Shown: positions 19,033 to 31,716 of the stretch, one piece after another | Layout: the number at the start of each line of letters is the position of its first letter | Numbering within the stretch: the stretch's first letter is position 1 | NCBI GenBank assembly: GCA_016934325.1 | Contig: JAFGSV010000030.1 | Span: forward strand, 1 to 40,838 | Source of the DNA: Candidatus Aenigmatarchaeota archaeon | Lineage (GTDB): Archaea > Aenigmatarchaeota > Aenigmatarchaeia > QMZP01 > JAFGSV01 | Length of the DNA stretch: 40,838 nt | Reading direction: 5' to 3' | The notes under the pieces: generated by a model | Database searches by the model: none | Told to the model about the DNA's origin: nothing | Seen by the model: only the letters and a program-made list of their open reading frames with translations | Position numbers and translations under genes: made by a program

Positions 19033-19049
19033 GATTAAATATGTTAATC
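19033..19049. promoter_or_regulatory. Perfect inverted repeat, candidate operator
   Basis: GATTAA-ATATG-TTAATC is a perfect 6-bp inverted repeat with a 5-bp spacer. It touches the TATA box of the acyl operon (19050) and lies 6 bp upstream of the TATA-like box of the divergent Lrp-like gene. Size and position suit binding by the Lrp-like protein. Confidence 0.5.
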
Positions 19050-19058
19050 TTTATAAAG
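19050..19058 (+). promoter_or_regulatory. TATA box of the ACP/acyl operon
   Basis: TTTATAAAG is centred 26 bp before the ATG at 19080. This supports a leaderless transcript beginning at that ATG rather than at the upstream ATG at 19041, which lies before the box. Confidence 0.6.
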
Positions 19059-19079
19059 ACCACATTTCTACTATCATCT

Positions 19080-19850
19080 ATGACCGGGGGCTCAATGATC
19101 TCTGATGATGCGAAAATCGGGGAGGATGCGAAGATCGGCAAGCTGGTCATCATAGAGGAGGGATGCGTCATCGGCAATGGCGTTTCCATCGGCGACAGGG
19201 TGACCTTGCACAAGGGAACAAGGATTGGTGACAACTCGGTCATACAGGAGAGCTGCATCATAGGAAAGCACCCCAGACCGGGGCCGAGGACTTCGCACAA
19301 AATCGACCCGCAGCCGGGTGCGGTCATTGGTGAGAAGGTTCTGGTCGGCGCGTTCTCAATAGTTTATGCAGGCACGGTCATCCATGATTACTGCTACGTC
19401 GGTGACTTCGTCGGGATCAGGGAGAAATGCGACATAGGCGAGTACTCGACGGTCGGCCGGGGAGTCCTTATCGAGTTCGGCGTGAAATGCGGGCATCATG
19501 TAAGGATAATGAACAACGCCCAGATCACCGAGGGCACGAGAATCGGGAACAACGTTTTCGTGGCGCCCGACGTAAGCACGATGACCGACAGGAAGATGGC
19601 AAGGGACGACAACATATTCGTTCCCCCGGTCTTCGAGGATAACACCAGGATCGGCAGCAACGCCGTCATACTTCCGGGAGTCAGGGTCGAGAAGGAAGGG
19701 ACCGTGGGCGCTGGCTCTGTAGTGATGAAGGACGTGAAGGAGAACCAGATCGTGGTCGGGAACCCGGCCAAGCTCGCGGGGATCGTCATGAAAAGGGACA
19801 GGCTGAGCCCGGACGGCACGCCGAACTGGAGGCTGAAGGGAAAGGAGTGA
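19080..19850 (+). CDS. Left-handed beta-helix (hexapeptide-repeat) acyltransferase
   Basis: A 256-aa protein and the first gene of the acyl operon. It is built almost entirely of hexapeptide repeats ([I/V]Gxx[A/V]x), for example IGEDAKIGKLVIIEEGCVIG and later TRIGSNAVILPGVRV. It ends with the NPAK loop (IVVGNPAKLAG) typical of sugar and amino-acid N/O-acyltransferases of this fold. These enzymes move an acyl group from CoA or ACP to an amine or hydroxyl. The adjacent carrier protein makes acyl-ACP a likely donor; the acceptor is unknown. Starting at the upstream ATG (19041) would add 13 residues that overlap the TATA box. Confidence 0.85.
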   Translation: MTGGSMISDDAKIGEDAKIGKLVIIEEGCVIGNGVSIGDRVTLHKGTRIGDNSVIQESCIIGKHPRPGPRTSHKIDPQPGAVIGEKVLVGAFSIVYAGTVIHDYCYVGDFVGIREKCDIGEYSTVGRGVLIEFGVKCGHHVRIMNNAQITEGTRIGNNVFVAPDVSTMTDRKMARDDNIFVPPVFEDNTRIGSNAVILPGVRVEKEGTVGAGSVVMKDVKENQIVVGNPAKLAGIVMKRDRLSPDGTPNWRLKGKE

Positions 19851-19855
19851 TTCGG

Positions 19856-20113
19856 ATGGCAGACGGAGACATCGAGGAAAGGATCAGGAAGGTATTCACG
19901 AGCGTATTCGAGGGCGTCAAGGCGGAAGACGTGACCTTCGACGGGAAGCATGAGGAGTTCGACGAATGGGACTCGCTCACGCACATGAACCTCGTGTCGG
20001 CGCTCGAGGAGGAGTTCGGGATAAGCCTCAGCGTCGATGACATCTCGGAGATGGACACCGTGACGAGGGTCCTGGAGACCGTGAAGAAGCTGCATAACGG
20101 CAAAGGGGGGTAG
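19856..20113 (+). CDS. Acyl carrier protein
   Basis: 85 aa, acidic and helical, with the phosphopantetheine site EWDSLTHMNLV (Ser40). An FGISLS...DISEM...VTRVLE tail is typical of ACPs. ACPs are uncommon in archaea, which make isoprenoid lipids. Here it lies 5 bp after the acyltransferase and six genes ahead of an AcpS-type enzyme, so carrier and activating enzyme travel together. GGAG (19844-19847) lies 8 nt before ATG 19856; a GTG at 19847 would overlap the upstream gene and is less likely. Confidence 0.93.
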   Translation: MADGDIEERIRKVFTSVFEGVKAEDVTFDGKHEEFDEWDSLTHMNLVSALEEEFGISLSVDDISEMDTVTRVLETVKKLHNGKGG

Positions 20114-20118
20114 GTCAG

Positions 20119-21636
20119 ATGAACCTCACCCGGCTTATCCTGGAGAGAAATTCCGGCAATACGGAATCGATATGCCTGACGCAAGGCGATGATAGCTATT
20201 CCTACGGACAGCTGTTCGCCATGGTTGGCAAGGTGAAGGGATTCCTCTCGGGGAAAACAGGGAAAGGCGACAGGGTCGGATTGCTTTGCGAGAACGGCAT
20301 TGGATTCGTCTCGGCATATCTCGCCTGCCTCGATTCGGGGGTCGTGGTGGTGCCGACGAACACGAGCTCCTCCCGGGAGGAGCTGGAGTACATGGCCGGA
20401 AACTGCGCAATCAAGTTGTTCATCTGCTCCGCCAAGATGAGGAAGAAGCTGGAACTCGGCATACCGGATCATGACATATCGGGAATCCTTGAAGGTGACG
20501 GACCCGAAGCGCGGATAGGGAAGGAGAACCTGACGGATAAAGGTGATCTGGCGGCGTTGATGCATACATCAGGCAGCACCGGCAAGCCGAACGCCGTCAT
20601 GGTGACCCACGGCAACCTGCTCGCGAACACGTCATCCATACTCGGATATCTCGACATGAAGCCGAGCGACAGGACCATGGTCGTCCTCCCTTTCTATTAC
20701 TGCTATGGCGCATCACTGCTCCACATGACGCTGTGCGCGGGCGGACGGGTCGTCATAAACAACAAGTTCATGTTCCCTCAACGTGTCGCCAACGAGATAG
20801 TGGAGAAGAGGTGCACGATATTCGCTGGGGTTCCCAGCACATACCAGATAATGCTCAAGTACACGAGGATGGCTGAGATGGACATGTCTTGCCTGAGGTA
20901 TGCGCTGCAGGCGGGAGGGAAGCTCCCTGCAGACCACCTCAAGCAGCTGATGAAGGCGCTGCCCGGCACCGGCATAGTCGTCATGTACGGGCAGACGGAG
21001 GCGACGGCAAGGCTTTCATACCTCCCTCCGGACCTGCTAGAATCGAAGCTGGGGTCGGTGGGAAGAGGCATACCGGGAGTCGAGCTGAAGGTCATCGACG
21101 GAAGCGGGCGGGACGCCAAGCCCGGGGAGAGGGGCGAGATAATAGCCAGGGGAAACAACATATCGCCCGGTTACCTGAACAACGATGAAGAGACGCGCAT
21201 GACTTTCAGGGACGGGTGGCTCCATACGGGGGACATAGCCACCGTCGATGATGAAGGGTTCATATATGTCGTCGACAGGGAGAAGGACTTCGTGAAGGTG
21301 GGCGGGAACAGGGTTTCCCTGGCGGAGATAGAGAACACGGCCCTGCCGCTCAAAGGCGTAAGCGAGGCCATCGCAGTGGGCTTCCCTGACGAAATCCTCG
21401 GGGAAGCGGTCGCACTGTTCGTCGTCCCCGCGAACAACGGCCTGAAGCCGCAGGATGTGATGCGGATATGCAGTAAGGAGCTGCCGGCCTACAAGGTGCC
21501 CAAGACCGTCAGAATCATCGACAGGATACCGAGGAACGCTTACGGAAAGGTCCAGAGATTCAAGCTGCTGGAGCAGGTAAGCGTAAATCCCGGCGGACCC
21601 AAGAATACAGCAGAGAAGGTGGCCAGTGATGGATGA
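20119..21636 (+). CDS. AMP-forming acyl-CoA/acyl-ACP ligase
   Basis: 505 aa of the ANL (acyl-CoA synthetase/NRPS adenylation) superfamily. The P-loop TSGSTGKPNAVMVTHGN starts at about residue 150. Other motifs are VMYGQTEA (288-295), WLHTGDIA, VDREKDFVKVGGNRV, and the C-terminal catalytic Lys in YGKVQRF (Lys477). It would adenylate a carboxylic acid with ATP and pass it to a thiol. It sits 5 bp after the ACP gene, so the carrier's phosphopantetheine is the likely acceptor. The substrate cannot be read from the sequence by eye. Overlaps the next gene by 8 bp. Confidence 0.9.
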   Translation: MNLTRLILERNSGNTESICLTQGDDSYSYGQLFAMVGKVKGFLSGKTGKGDRVGLLCENGIGFVSAYLACLDSGVVVVPTNTSSSREELEYMAGNCAIKLFICSAKMRKKLELGIPDHDISGILEGDGPEARIGKENLTDKGDLAALMHTSGSTGKPNAVMVTHGNLLANTSSILGYLDMKPSDRTMVVLPFYYCYGASLLHMTLCAGGRVVINNKFMFPQRVANEIVEKRCTIFAGVPSTYQIMLKYTRMAEMDMSCLRYALQAGGKLPADHLKQLMKALPGTGIVVMYGQTEATARLSYLPPDLLESKLGSVGRGIPGVELKVIDGSGRDAKPGERGEIIARGNNISPGYLNNDEETRMTFRDGWLHTGDIATVDDEGFIYVVDREKDFVKVGGNRVSLAEIENTALPLKGVSEAIAVGFPDEILGEAVALFVVPANNGLKPQDVMRICSKELPAYKVPKTVRIIDRIPRNAYGKVQRFKLLEQVSVNPGGPKNTAEKVASDG

Positions 21637-22690
21637 CCGGATAATCCAGATGCTGCCCAAGGTCCATTTCCCGGGCGCGGTTTTCACGGGAGCCAACTCC
21701 CTGTTCTACCTGAAGACGCTGGACCAGGCGAAGACGCTCATCGTGGCCTCGGAGACGGCCTGGAGGCTCCACCGGGCGAAGATCGAGAAGCACATGCAAT
21801 CCAAGAGGATCATAGAAGCGGGCCACGAGCCGACGGTGGATGACATGGAAAGCCTAAAGGCGGAGGTCAGGAAAGGCGGCTACGAGAGCGTCATTGGGTT
21901 TGGCGGCGGCTCGGCCATGGACCTGGCAAAGACCAGCAGGATGCAGGACGACGGCATAAGGCTGGTGCTCATTCCCACGACGAGCGGGACCGGCTCCGAG
22001 TCGAGCAGGTACGCAATCATGATAAACGAAAAGAAAGAGAAGGAGCCGGTGACTTCCGAGAAGATGGTTCCCGACGTGGTGCTGCTTGACCATTCATTCA
22101 CCCTTTCTCTGCCACCCTTCGAGACCGCATACACATCCATAGACGCCTTGTCGCACTCGGTCGAGGGGCTTGTCTCGAGGCTTGGCAATCCATTGAGCGA
22201 CTCGCTGGCAGCAGCATCGATCGACATCATTGCTGAGAATCTACCGAAGGCCTTCAGGAACCAGCTTGATGCGCAGGCAAGGTCGGCCCTTCAGGTCGCC
22301 GGGTTCCTCGGCGGGCTGGTCCAGAGCAGCGCATCCGTGGGCCTGGCCCATTCGTTCGCCAACTGTCTCGGCCCGAAGCTGGGGATACCGCATGGGGCGG
22401 CGATAGCTGCGTTCCTGCCAGATGTCGTCAGGTTCAACATGGAGAAGTCGGAAAAGTGCGCGAAGCTTAGGAATCCGGCGTTCCTCAGGGATGGCGATGT
22501 GGCCGGGAAGCTGTCAGGCCTGCTGGGGCAGGTGGGCCTCGCGGACTACCTCAATCAGCTCGACTTCAGCCCTGTCGATATCGACGCGGCCGCGGAAAGT
22601 ATAAAGAGCGATGTCTGCACAAAGACGAACCCGTACAACCCGAGCGTCGATGAGATCAGAGGGTTGCTGGCATCTTTCGGGGTGAGATGA
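21629..22690 (+). CDS. Iron-type (group III) alcohol dehydrogenase
   Basis: 353 aa. An NAD(P)-binding segment GFGGGSAMDLAK is followed by PTTSGTGSESSRYAIM. All four metal ligands of the family are present: Asp172 and His176 in SIDALSHSVEG, His241 in GLAHSFANCLG, and His255 in GIPHGAA. It would interconvert an aldehyde and an alcohol, in context probably reducing the aldehyde made by the LuxC-like enzyme. Translationally coupled on both sides (8-bp and 4-bp overlaps). AAGGTGG lies just before the start. A GTG at 21626 is an equal in-frame alternative. Confidence 0.92.
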   Translation: MDDRIIQMLPKVHFPGAVFTGANSLFYLKTLDQAKTLIVASETAWRLHRAKIEKHMQSKRIIEAGHEPTVDDMESLKAEVRKGGYESVIGFGGGSAMDLAKTSRMQDDGIRLVLIPTTSGTGSESSRYAIMINEKKEKEPVTSEKMVPDVVLLDHSFTLSLPPFETAYTSIDALSHSVEGLVSRLGNPLSDSLAAASIDIIAENLPKAFRNQLDAQARSALQVAGFLGGLVQSSASVGLAHSFANCLGPKLGIPHGAAIAAFLPDVVRFNMEKSEKCAKLRNPAFLRDGDVAGKLSGLLGQVGLADYLNQLDFSPVDIDAAAESIKSDVCTKTNPYNPSVDEIRGLLASFGVR

Positions 22691-23784
22691 TGGGTGAGAT
22701 AGAGAACCTGCTGGGCGCAGAGCCATTCGGGATGGGAAAGGATGAGAAGAGGGAGAAGTTCCTAAGCGCGATGCGGGAGTCCCTTGCGTTCCATTGCGGC
22801 AACTGCCGGGAGTTCAGGGATTTCTGCGGCAGGCGTGGGTTCGACCCGGCCGGCAAGTTCTCGCTCGAGGACATACCATTCCTGCATGTTGATACATTCA
22901 AGACGGTCAGGCTCGTTTCGGTGCCCGAGAAGGACATAGTCAAGAGCGTGCAATCCAGCTCGACCACCGGGAACGTCCCGAGCACGGTCAGGCTCGACAG
23001 GGTGACGATCGAGAGGCAGAGGAGGGTGCTCAGCTCCATAATGGCCAGCTTCATAGGGCCGGAGAGGAAGGCGTTCATTATACTGGACAGTCCGGAGACC
23101 GTCAAGTCCAAGGAAGGGAAGATATCGTCAAGGGCGAGCGGCATAAGGGGCATGCTCCCGTTCTCAAAGCAGGTGTTCTACGCCCTGAACGAGAATCTTG
23201 AGCCAGACGCAGAATCGCTCAGAAGGGCCGTCGGCGCGATAGGGCCCGGTGTAGAGGTGTGCTTTTTCGGATTCACGTTCCTCATGTATAAGTTCGTCGT
23301 GGAGGCCGAGAAAAACAAGGAGATGCTCGACATGCTCAAGGGGCTGCACGAGCCGGTGATCGTCCACACAGGCGGCTGGAAGAAGCTCAAGGACCTCATG
23401 ATAAGCAAGGCGGAGTTCAACGAGTCAGTCGCCAAGGCGTTCAACACGGTGCCGGGGAAGGTCATAGACATGTACGGCATGACGGAGCAACTGGGGACCG
23501 TTTACCCGGACTGCGAGCGCGGCTACAAGCATGTCCCCGTGTACTCGGATATCATCATCCGTGACCCGAACACGTTCGAGCCCGTCCGAAACGGAGAGCC
23601 CGGGCTCATCCAGCTGCTGAGCCCAGTGCCCAACAGCTATCCAGGCATATCGCTCATCACCGACGACATGGGCGTGATGATCGGCGATGACGGGTGCAAG
23701 TGCGGGAGGAGAGGAGAGCATTTCATCTTCAAGGAGAGGGTCAAGAAGAGCGAGATAAAAGGATGCGGTGACACCCTGAAATGA
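22687..23784 (+). CDS. LuxE-like acyl-protein synthetase
   Basis: 365 aa. It resembles LuxE, the ATP-dependent enzyme of bacterial fatty acid reductase that forms acyl-AMP and hands the acyl group on for reduction. Visible motifs are the nucleotide loop SSSTTGNVPST (90-100), DMYGMTEQ (261-268), and a C-terminal CGRRGEHFIFKERVKKSEIK region like the hinge of adenylating enzymes. The start overlaps the dehydrogenase stop as ATGA, and its own end overlaps the LuxC-like gene as ATGA, so LuxE and LuxC partners are probably made in equal amounts. A second acid-activating enzyme in one operon suggests either two substrates or a relay. Confidence 0.85.
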   Translation: MMGEIENLLGAEPFGMGKDEKREKFLSAMRESLAFHCGNCREFRDFCGRRGFDPAGKFSLEDIPFLHVDTFKTVRLVSVPEKDIVKSVQSSSTTGNVPSTVRLDRVTIERQRRVLSSIMASFIGPERKAFIILDSPETVKSKEGKISSRASGIRGMLPFSKQVFYALNENLEPDAESLRRAVGAIGPGVEVCFFGFTFLMYKFVVEAEKNKEMLDMLKGLHEPVIVHTGGWKKLKDLMISKAEFNESVAKAFNTVPGKVIDMYGMTEQLGTVYPDCERGYKHVPVYSDIIIRDPNTFEPVRNGEPGLIQLLSPVPNSYPGISLITDDMGVMIGDDGCKCGRRGEHFIFKERVKKSEIKGCGDTLK

Positions 23785-25061
23785 GCTTAAAGACTATATT
23801 CTTCGATGGGAGGATATGCCGGAGCGAGCCGGACGGCCTGGACGAGATAGCCGACGCCCTCAGGAAGCAGGCCAGGGCTCTGCACGACATCGAGGTTGAC
23901 GAGCTTGTGGAATTCTTCGACGCCGTCGGCAGGCATTGGCTCAGGAGCCCCGGAATCAAGAAGAGGTTCGGGCCCACGCTCAAATTCCTCGCAAAGTTCA
24001 TGGACAAGGGGAACCTGACGACCCTGCTGGATACAGCCCTGAGGGACAGGCATGCGCTTGACGGTTTCGTCAAGCTAAACAAGACGAAGATGCTTTTCCA
24101 TGCCCAGCCCAGGGGGCTGACTGTACACTGGATAGCCGGGAATGTCCCTGTTCTTGGGATATTCTCCGTCCTGCAGGCGTTGCTTACCAAGAACGCATGC
24201 CTGGTGAAGGCGTCGTCAAGATCATATGAGGACATGACCGCGCTGCTTCAGTCATTCAGCGAAGTCAGCACGAAGAATCTCAAGGGAAACCGGATCGCCA
24301 AGGCCGTCGCGGTCGTCCTTGTTGAGAGGGAGGACAAGGAAAGCCAGCGAAAGCTCTCAATGTCGGCCGACGTGAGGATAGCCTGGGGCGGCAGGGAGGC
24401 GGTCGATGCCATAACGAGATTAGAGAGAAGGGCGGAGACGGAGGACATCATATATGGCCCCAAGTACTCGTATGCCGTGATCGGCAGGGAAAAATTGCGC
24501 GGAGACGTCAGGCCCCTTGCCTACAAGCTCGCCATAGACGCCTCGGCGTTCGACCAGTATGCGTGCTCTTCCCCCCATACCGTGTTCGTCGAGAGGGGCG
24601 GGAAGGCCAGCCCGCTCGATTTCGCCGAGGAGCTGGCGAAGCAGATGGACTTCGTGAGCAAGAAGGTAATACAGCCGGGGAAACCGGACCCCGGCAGGTC
24701 GCTTGACATACTGAAGGCCAGGAACGAATACGAGTTCAGGGGGCAGGTATTCTCTTCGAAGAACACGGACTGGACGGTCATATATTCCGATGAGCAGGGG
24801 CTGGCCCAGGCATGCTTCTCGAGGGTAGTGTTCGTAAGGCCGGTCGATGACATAAGCGACGTCTGCGCCTTCAGCGGCAGAGGGATGCAGACGATGGGAG
24901 TCGCCGTGTCCGACGAGAGGAGGCGGACCTTCGCCGACAGCGCAACGGTTCGCGGCATAGACAGGTGCCCGCCTATCGGGGAGATGTCCTTCTTCCAGTC
25001 CCCCTGGGACGGCATGTTCGCGTTCGACAGGCTTGTGCGCTGGGTGACGACCTATGAGTGA
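23781..25061 (+). CDS. LuxC-like acyl-CoA/acyl-protein reductase
   Basis: 426 aa. It belongs to the LuxC family (aldehyde-dehydrogenase fold), which reduces an enzyme-bound acyl thioester with NAD(P)H to an aldehyde. The catalytic Cys is visible in FDQYACSSPHTVFVE (Cys262). WIAGNVPVLGIFSVLQALLTKNA (about 115-137) matches the LuxC nucleotide-binding region, and a later segment reads FSSKNTDWTVIYS. Length is close to that of LuxC (about 480 aa in luminous bacteria), slightly shorter. Coupled by ATGA overlap to LuxE upstream and by 8 bp to AcpS downstream. No luciferase genes are nearby, so this is not bioluminescence. Confidence 0.88.
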   Translation: MSLKTIFFDGRICRSEPDGLDEIADALRKQARALHDIEVDELVEFFDAVGRHWLRSPGIKKRFGPTLKFLAKFMDKGNLTTLLDTALRDRHALDGFVKLNKTKMLFHAQPRGLTVHWIAGNVPVLGIFSVLQALLTKNACLVKASSRSYEDMTALLQSFSEVSTKNLKGNRIAKAVAVVLVEREDKESQRKLSMSADVRIAWGGREAVDAITRLERRAETEDIIYGPKYSYAVIGREKLRGDVRPLAYKLAIDASAFDQYACSSPHTVFVERGGKASPLDFAEELAKQMDFVSKKVIQPGKPDPGRSLDILKARNEYEFRGQVFSSKNTDWTVIYSDEQGLAQACFSRVVFVRPVDDISDVCAFSGRGMQTMGVAVSDERRRTFADSATVRGIDRCPPIGEMSFFQSPWDGMFAFDRLVRWVTTYE

Positions 25062-25428
25062 GGGAATGCGTTTCCACGACATAAAGGGCATCGGGGTGGA
25101 TTGCGTCGACATATCGAGGTTCGAGGACCTCAAGCCGCATTTCCTCAGGAAGGTCTACACTAAGAAGGAGATCAGATACTGCAGGTCGAAGCCCGTCCAG
25201 GCACAGCACTTCGCCGGAAGGTTCGCCGGGAAGGAATCGGTAATCAAGGCGTTCGACCGGGCCGGGAAGAGCGTAGCGATGGACAAGATCGAGATCCTGA
25301 ACACCACCTCGGGAGCGCCCGTGGTGAAGATATTGAGAGACGGGTTCGATCATTTCAGGATCTTCCTGAGCATATCGCATTCGAGAGAAGTGGCCGTCGC
25401 TTTCTGCATCGTGACATGCGAGCGTTGA
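25054..25428 (+). CDS. AcpS-type holo-ACP synthase
   Basis: 124 aa. It transfers 4'-phosphopantetheine from CoA to the ACP serine. Motifs: GIGVDCVDISRFE (Asp16 for metal), GRFAGKESVIKAF (Lys60, Glu61) and SISHSREVAVAF near the C-terminus, all as in AcpS. As last gene of the operon it gives the ACP its own activating enzyme, so the cluster is self-contained. Its 3' end is 12 bp from the convergent WbpD-like gene. Confidence 0.92.
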   Translation: MSEGMRFHDIKGIGVDCVDISRFEDLKPHFLRKVYTKKEIRYCRSKPVQAQHFAGRFAGKESVIKAFDRAGKSVAMDKIEILNTTSGAPVVKILRDGFDHFRIFLSISHSREVAVAFCIVTCER

Positions 25429-25440
25429 TGCAGCGCACGA

Positions 25441-26025
25441 TCATTTCAGGACTTCGTATACCTTGGCCGGGATCCTACAGTCCTTGCCGCACGCCTTGCA
25501 TTTCAGGACGTACGCATCGCCTTTCTTGGTTCCGGCACCAAGGACCTCCCCGCAGAAGCATACGAACCCGCGAAGCTTTGCCGGGTTCCCGTAGACGAGG
25601 CCGTGGTCCGGAACGTCCGCAGTCACCACGCTGCCTCCCCCCACCATCGAATGGCTGCCGATCGTGATCCCGCATATAATCGTGGAGTTGACTCCGATTG
25701 AGGCACCTTTCTTCACCAATGTCTTCACGACTTCCCATTTCGCGCTATGCGCCCTGGGCCTCATGTCGTTTGTGAATGCCACGTGGGGCCCTATGAAGAC
25801 ATCATCCTCGATTGTCACGCCTTTGAAGATAGAGACCTTGTTCTCGATCTTGACGTTGCTCCCAACCTTGACGCCCTCACCGACATATGCGCAGTGGCCC
25901 ACGACGCAATTGCTGCCAAGGATGGCGCCCTCCCTCACATGGGCGTAGTGCCACACCTTGGTGCCGCTGCCTATCCTCGATCCCTTATCGGCCGTGGCCG
26001 TCTCGTGTACGAAAGCTCCTTTCAT
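25441..26025 (-). CDS. WbpD/WlbB-like sugar N-acetyltransferase with C-terminal zinc ribbon
   Basis: 194 aa, left-handed beta-helix with HxxA-type start [21 protein letters not shown]. Other segments: [15 protein letters not shown], the catalytic-type region [17 protein letters not shown], and [14 protein letters not shown]. In WbpD-type enzymes this transfers acetyl to the 3-amino group of UDP-GlcNAc(3N)A. The C-terminus has CFCG...CKACG, a four-Cys ribbon seen in some members. It is the last gene of a three-gene set with the aminotransferase and dehydrogenase, 17 bp after the latter. Confidence 0.88.
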
Positions 26026-26042: not shown

Positions 26043-27005
26043 TCATATGCACTTCATGATATCGGTGGCGATCCTGAGGACGTTCAGGCCCTCGGCGCCG
26101 CTCACGAGGGGCTCCCTGTCGTTCTTAACGGAATCGATGAAGTCCTCGAGCTCGAGCTTGAGGGGCTCCTGCTTCCTGACCCTGATCAGCCTCTTCCTGG
26201 GCTCCCCGAACCTGACCACGAAATCCCCGAACTTGTCGAAGGTCTTCCTGTAGTTGCTCTCGTGCATCTCGAGGTCCTGTGTTATGTAATTGAGCTCGGC
26301 ATAGCCTTTGGTGCCCGTGACGTTGAGCACCCTTATCTTGACGGGGGTGATCCAGTTGACCTCTATGAGCCCGTTGGTGCCGTTGTACTTCATGAATATG
26401 TCGGCATAGTCCTCCCTGTCATTCACAAGCGCCTTGCCTGCCGACGCGCTTATCTTCACGGGATCCTTTCCGAGCAGGTAGTTGAAGACGTCAATGTCGT
26501 GGACGGCGATGTCTATGATGACGTTGGCGTCCTTTATCCTCGGCGGGAACAGCCCGACCCTCCTGGCCAGGATGGAAGTGATCTCCCCCAGCTTCCCGGC
26601 GTCGATCAGCTCCTTAAGGCGCTGGACAGCCGGATTGAACCTCTCTATGTGGCCGACGGCGAGCTTCAAGCCCTTCTTCCTGGCGAGGCGGACGATCTCC
26701 TCCGCGTGCCTGATGTTCTTCGTTATGGGCTTCTCGATGAGGAGGTTCACGCCCCTTTCAATCACGTCCTTTGCGACCGTGTAATGCAGCGACGTCGGGA
26801 CGCACACGGAGACAGCATCGGGCCTTTCCTTTTCAAGGAACTCCCTGTGGTCCTTGTAGTGCCGGCAGCCGCACCTCTTTGCGACCTCCCTTCCCGTGTG
26901 CTCGTCGGGGTCCGCGATGCCGACCAGGTTCACGCCAGGCATCTCGGAGTAGATGCGCGCGTGGTTCTTGCCCATGCTCCCTGCACCTATGACGCCGACT
27001 TTCAT
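26043..27005 (-). CDS. WlbA/WbpB-like UDP-GlcNAcA 3-dehydrogenase (Gfo/Idh/MocA family)
   Basis: About 320 aa. N-terminal Rossmann fold with VGVIGAGSMGKNHARIY, the family EKP motif in LLIEKPITKN, and the C-terminal-domain segment AVGHIERFNPAVQRLKELI. It would oxidise the 3-position of UDP-N-acetylglucosaminuronic acid before transamination. The ATG at 27005 is chosen because AGGTGA, which contains the stop of the upstream aminotransferase, lies 5 nt before it; an in-frame ATG lies three codons earlier. Its intact motifs contrast with the degenerate paralogue at 17695-18573. Confidence 0.88.
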   Translation of the reverse strand: MKVGVIGAGSMGKNHARIYSEMPGVNLVGIADPDEHTGREVAKRCGCRHYKDHREFLEKERPDAVSVCVPTSLHYTVAKDVIERGVNLLIEKPITKNIRHAEEIVRLARKKGLKLAVGHIERFNPAVQRLKELIDAGKLGEITSILARRVGLFPPRIKDANVIIDIAVHDIDVFNYLLGKDPVKISASAGKALVNDREDYADIFMKYNGTNGLIEVNWITPVKIRVLNVTGTKGYAELNYITQDLEMHESNYRKTFDKFGDFVVRFGEPRKRLIRVRKQEPLKLELEDFIDSVKNDREPLVSGAEGLNVLRIATDIMKCI

Positions 27006-27010
27006 GCAAA

Positions 27011-28096
27011 TCACCTGAACTTCTCCATCACTTCAACGACCCTTTTCAGTTCGGCTTTTTTAAGCTTGGGGTGAACGGGCAGGGAGATCACCTGCTCCGA
27101 TAGCGATTCGGCCACCGGGCAGATCCCCTTTTCATAACCAAGCGACCTGTATGCGGGCTGCAGGTGAACAGGCGTTGGATAATATATCCTCGCGCCGACG
27201 CCGCTCGAGTTCAGGTGCTCAAACAGGTCGTCCCTGATCCCCGCCTGGACCTTCACGGTGAACTGGTGCCACACGTGCTTGACGCCCTTGCTGACATAGG
27301 GGACCTCCACCCAGTCGAGCTTCCCCAGCCGCTTGCTCAGGAAGCGCGCATTCCTCTCCCTCTGCGAATTCAACTTGGCGAGCCTGCCGAGCTGGACGAG
27401 CCCGATGGCGCCCTGCATGTCCATCATCCTGTAGTTGTAGCCTATCATGACGTGGTCGTACCGGCCCAGCTGGCCCTGGTTCACGATGACCTTCGCCTTC
27501 TGGGCCGCTGCCTCGTTGTCCGTCAGTATCATTCCCCCTTCCCCCGTGACCATGTTCTTGGTCGCATAGAAGGAGAAGGTGGACAGGTCCCCCAGGGAGC
27601 CCACGCGCTTCCCCTTGTATTCGGCGCCGTGCGCCTGGGCGCAGTCCTCGATGAGCAGCAGGTCGTTCTCCTTGCAGATCTTCTGCATCGCTGCCATGTC
27701 GCATGGCTGCCCGTACAGGTGAACGACCAAGACAGCCCTGGTCTTCCCGGTTATCTTGGATTCTATCTTGACAGGGTCAATGTTGAAGGTCCTCTGGTCT
27801 ATGTCCGCGAAGACCGGCACCGCCCTGTTATATAGTATGCTATTGCCGGTGGCTATGAACGTGAAAGGGGTCGTTATGACCTCGTCCCCATCCTTTATCC
27901 CCACGGCCTCAAGGCCGACCTGCAGCGCGGCCGTTCCCGAGGAGCACGCTACCCCATGCTTGGTGCCTATGAAAGAAGAGAACCTTTTCTCGAACTCCTG
28001 CACGCTCTTGCCCTGCGTGAGGTTGCCGGACCTGAGCACCCTGACGGCCGCCCTGATTTCCTCGGAGCCCAAGGCCGGACTGGCTATCGGTATCAT
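27011..28096 (-). CDS. WbpE-like sugar aminotransferase (DegT/DnrJ/EryC1 family)
   Basis: 361 aa, PLP-dependent. The PLP Lys is in FSFYATKNMVTGEGG (Lys180); VACSSGTAALQVGLEA (49-64) and EDCAQAHGAEYKGKRVG (150-166) are typical family segments. In the WbpB-WbpE-WbpD pathway it aminates the 3-keto sugar. It heads the operon. A TATA-like CATTTAAAAA box on the opposite strand sense (28119-28128) is about 28 bp from the ATG, fitting a leaderless transcript. This diacetamido-uronic acid occurs in known archaeal N-glycans. Confidence 0.93.
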   Translation of the reverse strand: MIPIASPALGSEEIRAAVRVLRSGNLTQGKSVQEFEKRFSSFIGTKHGVACSSGTAALQVGLEAVGIKDGDEVITTPFTFIATGNSILYNRAVPVFADIDQRTFNIDPVKIESKITGKTRAVLVVHLYGQPCDMAAMQKICKENDLLLIEDCAQAHGAEYKGKRVGSLGDLSTFSFYATKNMVTGEGGMILTDNEAAAQKAKVIVNQGQLGRYDHVMIGYNYRMMDMQGAIGLVQLGRLAKLNSQRERNARFLSKRLGKLDWVEVPYVSKGVKHVWHQFTVKVQAGIRDDLFEHLNSSGVGARIYYPTPVHLQPAYRSLGYEKGICPVAESLSEQVISLPVHPKLKKAELKRVVEVMEKFR

Positions 28097-29084: not shown

Positions 29085-30128
29085 ATGGCCGTTGGCATCG
29101 TGGGTTACGGGGCCTACATCCCCAGGTGGAGGATAAAGTCCTCATCGATAGCCGAAGTCTGGGGATCTGACCAGGGGAGGACCAACTCTCTCGTGGACGA
29201 GAAGGCGGTGAGCAGCCTCGACGAGGACGCTGCGACGATGGCAGTCGAGGCAGGGAAGAGCGCGCTGCTGAGGGCGGGCATAAACCCCAAGGACATAGGG
29301 GCCCTTTACGTTGGTTCCGAATCCCATCCCTACGTCGTGAAGTCGACCTCGTCCATAGTCGCCGAGGCCCTTGACGCGACCCCCGACCTGACCGCCGCGG
29401 ACCTCGAGTTCGCGTGCAAGGCGGGGACGGCCGGCATGCAGATGGCCATGGGCCTCATCGAGTCCGGCAGGATCAAGTACGGCATGGCCATCGGTTCCGA
29501 CACCGCCCAGGGAAGGCCGGGAGACGAGCTGGAATACACGGCCGCTTCCGGGGCAGCTTCTTACATTCTGGGAAGCAGGGGCCTGATCGCCAAGATCAAC
29601 GACACGTGCTCGTACACCACCGACACCCCCGATTTCTGGAGAAGGGAGGGCGAGGAGTTCCCGAGGCACGGGGGAAGGTTCACGGGCGAGCCGGCCTACT
29701 TCACCCATGTGCTGGCGGCGACCAGGGCTTTGCTCGAGAAGACGGGGACCACGGTCGAAGATTATGACTATTTCGTATTCCACCAGCCCAACGCGAAGTT
29801 CCCGCTGAAGGCGGCGAAGACGCTGGGGATACCGGCCGGGAAGATCATGCAGGGTCTGCTGGTCTCCCAGATCGGTAACACGTACTCCGCTGCGAGCCTT
29901 CTCGGCCTGGCGGCGGTGCTGGACGTCGCGAGGCCCGGGGAGAACATACTGCTTACGTCGTTCGGGTCGGGCGCGGGCTCCGATTCGTTCTCCATCACGG
30001 CCACCGATCTCATAACCAAGAAGAGGCGCTTGGCGCCCTTCGTCAAGAACATGATAGCGGTGAAGGAATACATAGGCTATGCCCATTATATCAAGTTCAG
30101 AAGGAAGCTGAAGGGGGCCATGAGATGA
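29085..30128 (+). CDS. Hydroxymethylglutaryl-CoA synthase (archaeal type)
   Basis: 347 aa, the usual archaeal length. It condenses acetoacetyl-CoA with acetyl-CoA to HMG-CoA for the mevalonate pathway that makes archaeal isoprenoid lipids. The N-terminus VGIVGYGAYIPRWRI is typical. The catalytic Cys111 is in DLEFACKAGTAGMQ and the conserved His in YFVFHQPNAKFP; SFGSGAGSDSF is near the C-terminus. The stop overlaps the thiolase start as ATGA, part of the conserved HMGCS-thiolase-DUF35 operon. Confidence 0.97.
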   Translation: MAVGIVGYGAYIPRWRIKSSSIAEVWGSDQGRTNSLVDEKAVSSLDEDAATMAVEAGKSALLRAGINPKDIGALYVGSESHPYVVKSTSSIVAEALDATPDLTAADLEFACKAGTAGMQMAMGLIESGRIKYGMAIGSDTAQGRPGDELEYTAASGAASYILGSRGLIAKINDTCSYTTDTPDFWRREGEEFPRHGGRFTGEPAYFTHVLAATRALLEKTGTTVEDYDYFVFHQPNAKFPLKAAKTLGIPAGKIMQGLLVSQIGNTYSAASLLGLAAVLDVARPGENILLTSFGSGAGSDSFSITATDLITKKRRLAPFVKNMIAVKEYIGYAHYIKFRRKLKGAMR

Positions 30129-31309
30129 ATTCACCGAGGAGGGACGTGGCCATCATCGGGGTCGGGATAACCAAGTACGGCGAGCACTGGAACCAGGGCC
30201 TCAAGCACCTCATCACGGAGGCCGGCGTGAGGGCCATCAAGGACGCCAGGATATCCGGGAGCGACATAGAGCTCATCGTCGGCGGCTCCATGTCCAGCGG
30301 CATGTTCGTCGGCCAGGAGCACACGGGGGCATTGTTCGCCGACTACATGGGGCTGAACCCCAAGCCGGCGATCAGGACCGAGGCAGCGTGCGCAAGCTCG
30401 AGCGTCGCCCTTCGGGTGGGCTGCATGGCCATAGCGTCGGGGATGCACGACTGCGTGGCCGTGGGCGGCGCGGAGAAGATGACGGACGTCTATGGGTCGC
30501 AGGCCACCACCGCCCTGGCGGGGGCCATGGACAGGGACAACGAGGCATACTTCGGCCTGACGTTCCCGGGAGTCTACGCGATGATGGCGAAGAGGCACAT
30601 GCACCAGTACGGCACGACCAGGGAGCAGCTCTCGCTCGTCGCGATCAAGAACCACGACAACGCCATGCACAACCCGTGCGCGCAGTACCACAGGAAGATC
30701 GGGTTGGAGGACGTCTTGAAATCGCCCCTCGTGGCGGACCCCCTGAGGCTGCTTGACTGCTCACCCATAGCGGACGGGGCTGCATGCATAATAATTGTTC
30801 CCGCGGACCAGGCGAAGAAATACACGGACACGCCCATATACATAAGGGCGTCGGCGCAGTCGTCTGATACTCTTGGCCTGTACATGAGGAAGGACATCAC
30901 CACGATCAGCGCCAACATACACGCGGCGAGGCTCGCTTTCCAGATGGCGAATATGAAGCCGGCGGACATAGACCTCGCGGAGGTGCATGACTGCTTCACG
31001 ATAAACGAGATCATAAGCTGCGAGGACCTGGGCTTCTGCAAGAAGGGCGCCGGGGGAAAGACCGTCGAGGAAGGGGAGACCCAGATAGGGGGCAGGATAC
31101 CCGTCAATACCAGCGGCGGGCTGAAGGCAAAGGGGCACCCCGTAGGCGCGACTGGAGCCGGCCAGATCGTGGAGCTGGTCGAGCAGCTGAGGGGAGACGC
31201 GGGCAAGAGGCAGGTGAGCGGTGCCGAGACGGGCCTTGCTCACAACGTTGGCGGGTCAGGCAGCACGGTCGCCATACACATACTTTCCAGGAACAGGGGG
31301 AGGGCGTGA
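30125..31309 (+). CDS. Acetoacetyl-CoA thiolase (archaeal type)
   Basis: 394 aa. It condenses two acetyl-CoA to acetoacetyl-CoA. The nucleophile Cys89 is in RTEAACASSSVALRVG and the catalytic His in LKAKGHPVGATGAGQ. The C-terminal segment GLAHNVGGSGSTVAIHIL is the archaeal form, with His where bacterial enzymes often have Cys. In archaea this enzyme forms a complex with HMG-CoA synthase, bridged by a DUF35 protein, that passes on the unfavourable intermediate; all three genes are adjacent here. Confidence 0.95.
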   Translation: MNSPRRDVAIIGVGITKYGEHWNQGLKHLITEAGVRAIKDARISGSDIELIVGGSMSSGMFVGQEHTGALFADYMGLNPKPAIRTEAACASSSVALRVGCMAIASGMHDCVAVGGAEKMTDVYGSQATTALAGAMDRDNEAYFGLTFPGVYAMMAKRHMHQYGTTREQLSLVAIKNHDNAMHNPCAQYHRKIGLEDVLKSPLVADPLRLLDCSPIADGAACIIIVPADQAKKYTDTPIYIRASAQSSDTLGLYMRKDITTISANIHAARLAFQMANMKPADIDLAEVHDCFTINEIISCEDLGFCKKGAGGKTVEEGETQIGGRIPVNTSGGLKAKGHPVGATGAGQIVELVEQLRGDAGKRQVSGAETGLAHNVGGSGSTVAIHILSRNRGRA

Positions 31310-31311
31310 CG

Positions 31312-31716
31312 ATGGAAGAGAAAGCTGTGTCCTTCTACTGGAGGGGATTCAAGGAGCGGTACGGGCTCGTCGGCTCGAAGTGCGAGCTGTGCTCAAGGCA
31401 TTTCTTCCCAGGCAGGGTGATTTGCCCCGAATGCAGGAGAAAGGGGAAGATGCATGAGCACAGGTTCAGCGGGAAGGGAAAAGTATATTCGTACACCGTC
31501 ATAAGGACCCCCCCGACCGGCTTCGAGATATACATCCCCTACGTCGTCGCGATAGTGGACCTCGAGGAGGGCGCCAGGGTGGTCTCCCAGCTTGTCGACG
31601 TGAAGCCAGAGGAAGTCAGTATTGGCATGCCCGTCGAGGCGTGCTTCAGGAAGATCAGGGAGCAGAACCAATCTGGCCTCGTCCTGTACGGATTCAAGTT
31701 CAGGCCTCTGAAATAG
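31312..31716 (+). CDS. DUF35 zinc-ribbon/OB-fold protein, thiolase-HMG-CoA synthase scaffold
   Basis: About 134 aa. A zinc ribbon (CELCSRHFFPGRVICPECRRKG, about 21-42) is followed by an OB-fold (GKGKVYSYTVIRTPPTGFE...IPYVVAIVDLEEGARVVSQL). This is the DUF35 partner known to hold the archaeal thiolase and HMG-CoA synthase together. ATG 31312 is preferred: a GGGGGAGGG ribosome binding site lies 8 nt upstream. A GTG at 31306 overlaps the thiolase stop and is an alternative. Confidence 0.93.
   Translation: MEEKAVSFYWRGFKERYGLVGSKCELCSRHFFPGRVICPECRRKGKMHEHRFSGKGKVYSYTVIRTPPTGFEIYIPYVVAIVDLEEGARVVSQLVDVKPEEVSIGMPVEACFRKIREQNQSGLVLYGFKFRPLK

What the first reader, a model, noticed from the sequence alone, without database searches (positions are those of the whole stretch)
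19050..25428. Self-contained archaeal ACP operon for activating, reducing and transferring an acyl group
Seven genes with overlaps or gaps of at most 5 bp encode acyltransferase, ACP, AMP ligase, Fe-alcohol dehydrogenase, LuxE-like synthetase, LuxC-like reductase and AcpS. All key residues I can check are present (ACP Ser40, ligase Lys477, dehydrogenase Asp172/His176/His241/His255, LuxC Cys262, AcpS Asp16/Glu61). There is no ketosynthase, dehydratase or enoyl reductase, so it cannot build a fatty chain by itself; no luciferase is present. In an archaeon with isoprenoid lipids an ACP with a dedicated AcpS is notable. The simplest model is: acid to acyl-ACP, then either transfer by the hexapeptide enzyme or reduction via LuxE/LuxC to an aldehyde and by the dehydrogenase to an alcohol. 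Neighbouring glycan genes suggest an envelope target. I do not know of a described archaeal pathway with this gene set.
Basis: partly seen in the sequence, partly recalled or inferred. Interest (0 to 1): 0.85.

Follow-up and report, generated by a model that had tools for sequence, protein, structure and literature searches.

The report
Archaeal operon making glycan acyl decorations
A tiny archaeon carries a compact seven-gene set, sister to the genes that make the tetronate decoration of the cholera O-antigen, with its own enzyme for arming the carrier protein, and probably uses it to build a small hydroxy-acid and attach it to an amino sugar of its protein glycans rather than to make fats or light.

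Summary
The operon is real: seven same-strand genes at 19041(or 19080)-25428, with Pfam matches above cut-off and catalytic residues conserved. The host is a Ca. Aenigmatarchaeota MAG. The set recurs in a second Aenigmatarchaeote (G036), in Asgards in the same order, and with a FabG-type reductase instead of the Fe-ADH in methanogens, a Nanohaloarchaeon and flagellin-glycosylation islands. It also recurs in Vibrio-type genomes as ACP-ligase-Fe-ADH-LuxE/LuxC beside gmhD, the layout of the cholera O1 tetronate genes rfbKLMN. Window LuxC, LuxE and Fe-ADH group with those Vibrio proteins (support 100; 100/98; 97/95). So it is an archaeal variant of a known bacterial kind, not a fatty-acid, wax or light pathway. 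Best model: LuxE+LuxC reduce one carboxylate of a C4 diacid (perhaps malate), Fe-ADH makes the hydroxy-acid, the ligase loads it on holo-ACP, and the QdtC-like hexapeptide enzyme transfers it to an amino sugar for AglB N-glycans. Substrate, product and acceptor are inferred. The archaeal twist is a bundled AcpS: among 100 relatives it occurs only in the three with the operon. AglB, single-copy, is close by in three DPANN genomes. Published Aeromonas masses (376.14 and 102 Da) fit a C4 dihydroxyacyl group.

The parts
19050..19057 (+). TATA-like box (tttataaa), probable operon promoter; predicts a leaderless start at ATG 19080
   Evidence: sequence; inference
19080..19850 (+). HEX: hexapeptide (LbH) acyltransferase, QdtC/NeuD-like; longest ORF begins 19041
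   Evidence: Pfam Hexapep 123 bits; best solved relative QdtC 3fs8 E 8e-25; orthologues beside the operon in Sigynarchaeota, Nanohaloarchaea, Acidobacteria
19847..20113 (+). ACP (acyl carrier protein), Ser43 (Ser40 from the internal ATG)
   Evidence: PF00550 28.2 bits; Ser in 76/76
20119..21636 (+). LIG: AMP-forming acyl ligase, Lys477 (RfbL/WbeL-like)
   Evidence: PF00501 242 bits; Lys in 80/80; 26% identity to Vibrio counterpart, E 2e-45
21626..22690 (+). Fe-ADH: iron alcohol dehydrogenase (RfbM-like)
   Evidence: PF00465/PF25137; clade with 8 other operon Fe-ADHs incl. Vibrio, 97/95, against 22 other Fe-ADHs
22687..23784 (+). LuxE-like acyl-protein synthetase (counterpart of the N-terminal half of RfbN)
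   Evidence: PF04443 230 bits; Cys360; clade with Vibrio RfbN-like 100/98
23781..25061 (+). LuxC-like acyl reductase (counterpart of the C-terminal half of RfbN)
   Evidence: PF05893 284 bits; Cys262; clade with Vibrio RfbN-like 100
25054..25428 (+). AcpS: holo-ACP synthase
   Evidence: PF01648 60.7 bits; only PF01648 match in own genome, present in only 3 of 100 relatives
25441..26025 (-). neighbour: 3-N-acetyltransferase, WlbB/WbpD-like hexapeptide
   Evidence: 3mqg E 2e-44
26043..27014 (-). neighbour: UDP-GlcNAc 3-dehydrogenase-like (Gfo/Idh/MocA)
   Evidence: NF040723 362 bits, cut-off 450; 7bvj
27011..28096 (-). neighbour: DegT/DnrJ sugar aminotransferase
   Evidence: PF01041 443 bits
15383..16519 (-). 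neighbour: MraY/WecA-like polyprenyl-phosphate sugar-phosphate transferase
   Evidence: TIGR00445 62 bits
11153..13363 (+). neighbour: AglB/STT3 oligosaccharyltransferase, single copy in genome
   Evidence: TIGR04154 124 bits; PF02516

Best explanation
An archaeal version of the bacterial RfbKLMN(O) glycan-acylation pathway. AcpS arms the ACP. LuxE adenylates one carboxylate of a short (C4) dicarboxylic acid, probably malate or succinate, and passes it by Cys360 to LuxC Cys262; LuxC reduces it with NAD(P)H to a semialdehyde; the Fe-ADH reduces that to the hydroxy-acid (2,4-dihydroxybutyrate = 3-deoxy-glycero-tetronate, or a close C4 relative). The ligase adenylates the remaining carboxylate and loads it on holo-ACP; the QdtC-like hexapeptide enzyme transfers it to an amino sugar, probably a 3-amino sugar nucleotide made by the adjacent dehydrogenase/aminotransferase, which enters AglB-dependent N-glycans. 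Shown here: gene content, conserved residues, shared descent of LuxE, LuxC and Fe-ADH with the Vibrio set, AcpS coupling, AglB proximity. Inferred: chain length, substrate, order of steps, acceptor.
For: Same gene order ACP-ligase-FeADH-LuxE-LuxC in G036, Thor-, Hel- and Sigynarchaeota (the last with HEX in front, as here) and in two Vibrio-type genomes (G227, G474) with LuxE-LuxC fused (825 aa), ligase 473 aa, gmhD alongside one (NF008360 609 bits); published wbeL is 471 aa and the O1 locus starts at gmhD (PMC3441752). Window LuxC and LuxE are sister to these Vibrio proteins; Fe-ADH operon clade 97/95 against 22 other Fe-ADHs, most from the same genomes. AcpS in only 3 of 100 relatives, exactly the 3 with the operon and adjacent to it (chance 1/161,700). 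PPTase nearby in 10-12 of 13 archaeal vs 1 of 68 bacterial loci. AglB single-copy and 5.7, 0.2 and 2.0 kb from the operon in three DPANN genomes. C4 chemistry: 16 of 19 Clostridium copies lie beside 4-hydroxybutyryl-CoA dehydratase (1u8v, 819 bits) and a CoA transferase; Aeromonas group II islands with the FabG version have a 376.14 Da pseudaminic derivative and an unexplained 102 Da unit, against computed 376.148 and 102.032 for a dihydroxybutanoyl group, while A. caviae Sch3 has plain Pse5Ac7Ac. HEX best solved match is a 3-amino-sugar N-acyltransferase. Own genome has a malate dehydrogenase.
Against: No enzyme or glycan of any archaeon was assayed. The ligase tree does not place Vibrio next to the window (long branch). 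A Fe-ADH ligand His is Gly in G036, and G036 has no hexapeptide gene at the operon. The rfb pathway was itself proposed from sequence. Asgard and Clostridium copies carry a MaoC hydratase, so the chemistry may vary between lineages. 376/102 Da also fit isomers such as O-methylglyceroyl; the Aeromonas link is my inference.
Confidence: 0.68

Rival explanations
1. Same pathway family but a different acyl group or acceptor: for example 4-hydroxybutyryl from succinate, 3,4-dihydroxybutyryl, or O-acylation of a sugar or lipid-linked glycan rather than N-acylation of a 3-amino sugar.
For: Clostridium copies sit with 4-hydroxybutyrate genes; FabG replaces the Fe-ADH in many relatives; two hexapeptide enzymes near the window operon.
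Against: Window is closest to the Vibrio tetronate-type set.
Confidence: 0.2
2. Fatty-acid reduction to fatty aldehyde/alcohol (bioluminescence-like or wax/ether-lipid route), as the LuxC/LuxE names suggest.
For: LuxE/LuxC families were first described for tetradecanoic acid; the ligase's best models are fatty-acid CoA ligases.
Against: No luciferase or ketosynthase; NCBIfam LuxE and LuxC equivalog scores are far below cut-off (97 vs 550; 135 vs 750); relatives sit in glycan loci.
Confidence: 0.05
3. Remnant of a type II fatty-acid or polyketide system, or a recently acquired gene cluster without a function here.
For: Bacterial-type genes, patchy (AcpS and operon in 3 of 100 relatives).
Against: All catalytic residues kept over deep divergence; a second Aenigmatarchaeote with 54% LuxE identity keeps the set; no FAS ketosynthase.
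Confidence: 0.03

Closest known systems
V. cholerae O1 O-antigen tetronate genes rfbKLMNO / wbeKLMNO (VC0248-VC0252)
   Same: ACP, acyl ligase, Fe-ADH, LuxE and LuxC in the same order, transferase, amino-sugar glycan neighbourhood; LuxE, LuxC and Fe-ADH form supported clades with Vibrio-type copies
   Different: Archaeal host; LuxE and LuxC separate genes; AcpS bundled; hexapeptide gene first; target appears to be AglB N-glycans, not LPS
Flagellin glycosylation islands of Aeromonas and Enterobacteriaceae (PMC7874193, PMC4875605)
   Same: ACP, AMP ligase, LuxE, LuxC beside amino-sugar (pseudaminate) genes
   Different: FabG-type reductase instead of Fe-ADH; no AcpS; more distant LuxE/LuxC; O-linked flagellin
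luxCE fatty acid reductase of luminous bacteria (7xc6)
   Same: LuxE and LuxC families and acyl-transfer cysteines
   Different: Here with ACP, ligase, ADH, AcpS; no luciferase or LuxD; scores far below the lux equivalog cut-offs
Clostridium ACP-ligase-LuxE-LuxC loci beside AbfD/CoA transferase
   Same: Same four core proteins
   Different: No Fe-ADH of this type in the locus, no PPTase, catabolic C4 context

Membership tests
RfbKLMN(O)-type tetronate/hydroxyacyl pathway | ACP, AMP ligase, Fe-ADH, LuxE and LuxC in one operon | tested here: met
RfbKLMN(O)-type tetronate/hydroxyacyl pathway | LuxE, LuxC and Fe-ADH share the Vibrio subfamily | tested here: met
   100/98, 100, 97/95 support
RfbKLMN(O)-type tetronate/hydroxyacyl pathway | Ligase shares the Vibrio subfamily | tested here: inconclusive
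   Vibrio ligase on a long branch
RfbKLMN(O)-type tetronate/hydroxyacyl pathway | LuxE-LuxC fused in one protein (RfbN); a variable rather than defining trait of the wider family | tested here: not met
   separate overlapping genes here; fused in Vibrio-type genomes and the Nanohaloarchaeon
RfbKLMN(O)-type tetronate/hydroxyacyl pathway | Acyltransferase present (RfbO counterpart) | tested here: met
   hexapeptide enzyme 19080-19850; direct comparison with RfbO not possible
RfbKLMN(O)-type tetronate/hydroxyacyl pathway | Product is 3-deoxy-glycero-tetronyl on an amino sugar | not testable with these tools
   needs enzymology or glycan MS
Flagellin glycosylation island type | FabG-type reductase in the set | tested here: not met
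   Fe-ADH instead
lux fatty acid reductase | luxAB luciferase and LuxD; LuxC/LuxE above equivalog cut-off | tested here: not met
Type II fatty acid synthesis | Ketosynthase (PF00109) in the genome | tested here: not met
   only the thiolase matches; genome 79% complete

The most novel reading that the evidence does not exclude
In some archaea that lack fatty-acid synthesis, a complete ACP/AcpS carrier system exists only to put a short hydroxyacyl group on an amino sugar of AglB N-glycans: ACP-dependent acylation of archaeal N-glycans, a chemistry I know of no report for, obtained by exchange of an intact operon between bacteria and DPANN/Asgard archaea.
Probability: 0.5. Interest if true: 0.68.

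Novelty: new variant of a known kind. Interest (0 to 1): 0.56.

Why it matters
It gives a concrete reason for ACP and AcpS in archaea that have isoprenoid lipids and no fatty-acid synthase, predicts a new decoration on archaeal N-glycans, and links three scattered observations (cholera tetronate, the unexplained 376 and 102 Da flagellin units of Aeromonas, Clostridium LuxE/LuxC) under one C4 hydroxyacyl chemistry that can be tested.

Tried and rejected
Fatty-acid synthesis remnant: no ketosynthase. Bioluminescence: no luciferase, low lux scores. A shared GNAT-type acyltransferase in G036 and the Vibrio-type genomes: the two genes after LuxC are not detectably homologous. Sfp-type PPTase in Sigynarchaeota: no Pfam match, only a profile match to the Helarchaeal one, so counted as probable. 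FIST-LuxE-LuxC loci in G013 and G008 are a different system without ACP. V. cholerae itself could not be fetched; paper searches for wbe gene names and for archaeal LuxE/ACP found nothing relevant. Archaeal LuxE/LuxC are not one clade (3-4 label changes), so a single archaeal origin is not supported.
Full report
WHAT IS THERE. The seven genes lie as described on the + strand, 19041-25428, with Pfam matches above cut-off. Junctions are overlaps of 4-11 bp and one 5-bp gap. The first gene probably starts at 19080: a TATA-like tttataaa at 19050-19057 sits 27 bp upstream (inference). Catalytic residues are conserved over the family; the only oddity is the second Fe-ADH metal ligand, Gly in one relative. 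The host is a 1.24 Mb, 79% complete genome; its same-order relatives that could be named are Ca. Aenigmatarchaeota.

RECURRENCE. One genome-collection scan with a LuxE alignment gave 80 loci. Nearly all have ACP-ligase upstream of LuxE-LuxC. The reductase differs: Fe-ADH in the window, G036, Thor-, Hel-, Sigyn- and Heimdallarchaeota; FabG-type in Aeromonas, Alteromonas and many others, and in methanogens, a Thermoplasmata MAG, a Nanohaloarchaeon and the Aenigmatarchaeote G010; neither in Clostridium. The Sigynarchaeal order HEX-ACP-ligase-FeADH-LuxE-LuxC is that of the window.

THE KNOWN COUNTERPART. From memory I recognised the V. cholerae O1 rfbKLMNO set; the papers confirm the tetronate assignment of VC0248-0252 and LuxE in RfbN (PMC3441752, PMC4772473). 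Their loci read ACP, ligase (473 aa), Fe-ADH, LuxE-LuxC, with gmhD near one, matching the published layout (wbeL 471 aa; locus flanked by gmhD). I call them Vibrio-type; their species is not known to me. Trees: window and G036 LuxC with these, SH-aLRT 100; LuxE 100/98; nine operon Fe-ADHs one clade at 97/95 against 22 other Fe-ADHs, most of them paralogues from the same genomes. Pairwise identities: LuxE 38%, LuxC 37%, Fe-ADH 26%, ligase 26%, ACP 28%. The ligase tree is inconclusive. This shared descent of three proteins in the same gene order is why I file it with the tetronate type rather than merely the LuxE/LuxC family.

THE ARCHAEAL ADDITION. Among 100 relatives PF01648 occurs in three genomes, exactly those with ACP-ligase-LuxE-LuxC, each time next to it. 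Across all loci a PPTase lies nearby in 12 of 13 archaeal and 1 of 68 bacterial loci, or 10 of 13 if only Pfam-supported ones are counted (p 1.6e-9; rows are related, so p is a guide). Bacteria have a housekeeping AcpS; these archaea do not, so the operon must carry its own (inference).

TARGET. AglB is single-copy in G000, G036, G010 and the Nanohaloarchaeal genome, and lies 5.7, 0.2, 33 and 2.0 kb from the operon. The window's convergent neighbours are an amino-sugar set: UDP-GlcNAc 3-dehydrogenase-like, aminotransferase, WlbB-like N-acetyltransferase; the Nanohaloarchaeal locus has the dehydrogenase, aminotransferase, MraY-like transferase and AglB too. The operon's hexapeptide enzyme is nearest to QdtC, a 3-amino-sugar N-acyltransferase.

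PRODUCT. Three lines point to a C4 hydroxyacyl: kinship with tetronate genes; 16 of 19 Clostridium copies beside 4-hydroxybutyryl-CoA dehydratase, the other three loci being cut short at about the place where it would lie; and published Aeromonas masses. In strain AH-3, whose island has ACP, FabG, ligase, LuxE and LuxC, the linking sugar is 376.14 Da and a 102 Da unit is unexplained; swapping one acetyl of Pse5Ac7Ac for dihydroxybutanoyl gives 376.148, and the acyl residue is 102.032. A. caviae Sch3 carries plain Pse5Ac7Ac. That reading of the Aeromonas data is mine and isomers fit equally. A malate dehydrogenase is encoded in the own genome.

MECHANISM AND LIMITS. The linear model is in Best explanation. 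Shown: genes, residues, descent, couplings. Inferred: substrate, order, acceptor. The rfb pathway itself was proposed from sequence, and only its general role is backed by wbeL mutants. Confidence in the pathway kind is high; in tetronate specifically about 0.4.

Noticed in passing
L002:993-1280 and 1378-1677 (G000 contig 26): Two small ACP-like ORFs between the ribosomal protein L15 gene and secY; the second matches PF00550 (25.5 bits) with its Ser, the first has no Pfam match. An odd place for a carrier protein.
   Followed up: partly
L011:5876-9615 and L007 (G013, G008): FIST-domain protein followed by divergent LuxE and LuxC, no ACP nearby: a second, different archaeal LuxE/LuxC system.
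   Followed up: no
L019, L021, L086 and 13 other Clostridium loci: ACP-ligase-LuxE-LuxC conserved next to 4-hydroxybutyryl-CoA dehydratase and a CoA transferase, with a PAS-like regulator in some; function apparently undescribed.
   Followed up: partly
L013:648-1139, L028:5540-6172, L082:5571-6080, L016:5019, L019:11416-11826: MaoC-like hydratase beside the operon in Asgard archaea, a planctomycete and some Clostridium, hinting at a dehydration or hydration step in those variants.
   Followed up: partly
L047:4491-6953: Nanohaloarchaeal LuxE-LuxC fusion of 820 aa, the RfbN architecture, in a locus with DegT, HEX, AcpS, UDP-GlcNAc 3-dehydrogenase, MraY-like transferase and AglB.
   Followed up: partly
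window 29085-31716: Archaeal HMG-CoA synthase, thiolase and DUF35 genes (mevalonate pathway), ordinary.
   Followed up: no
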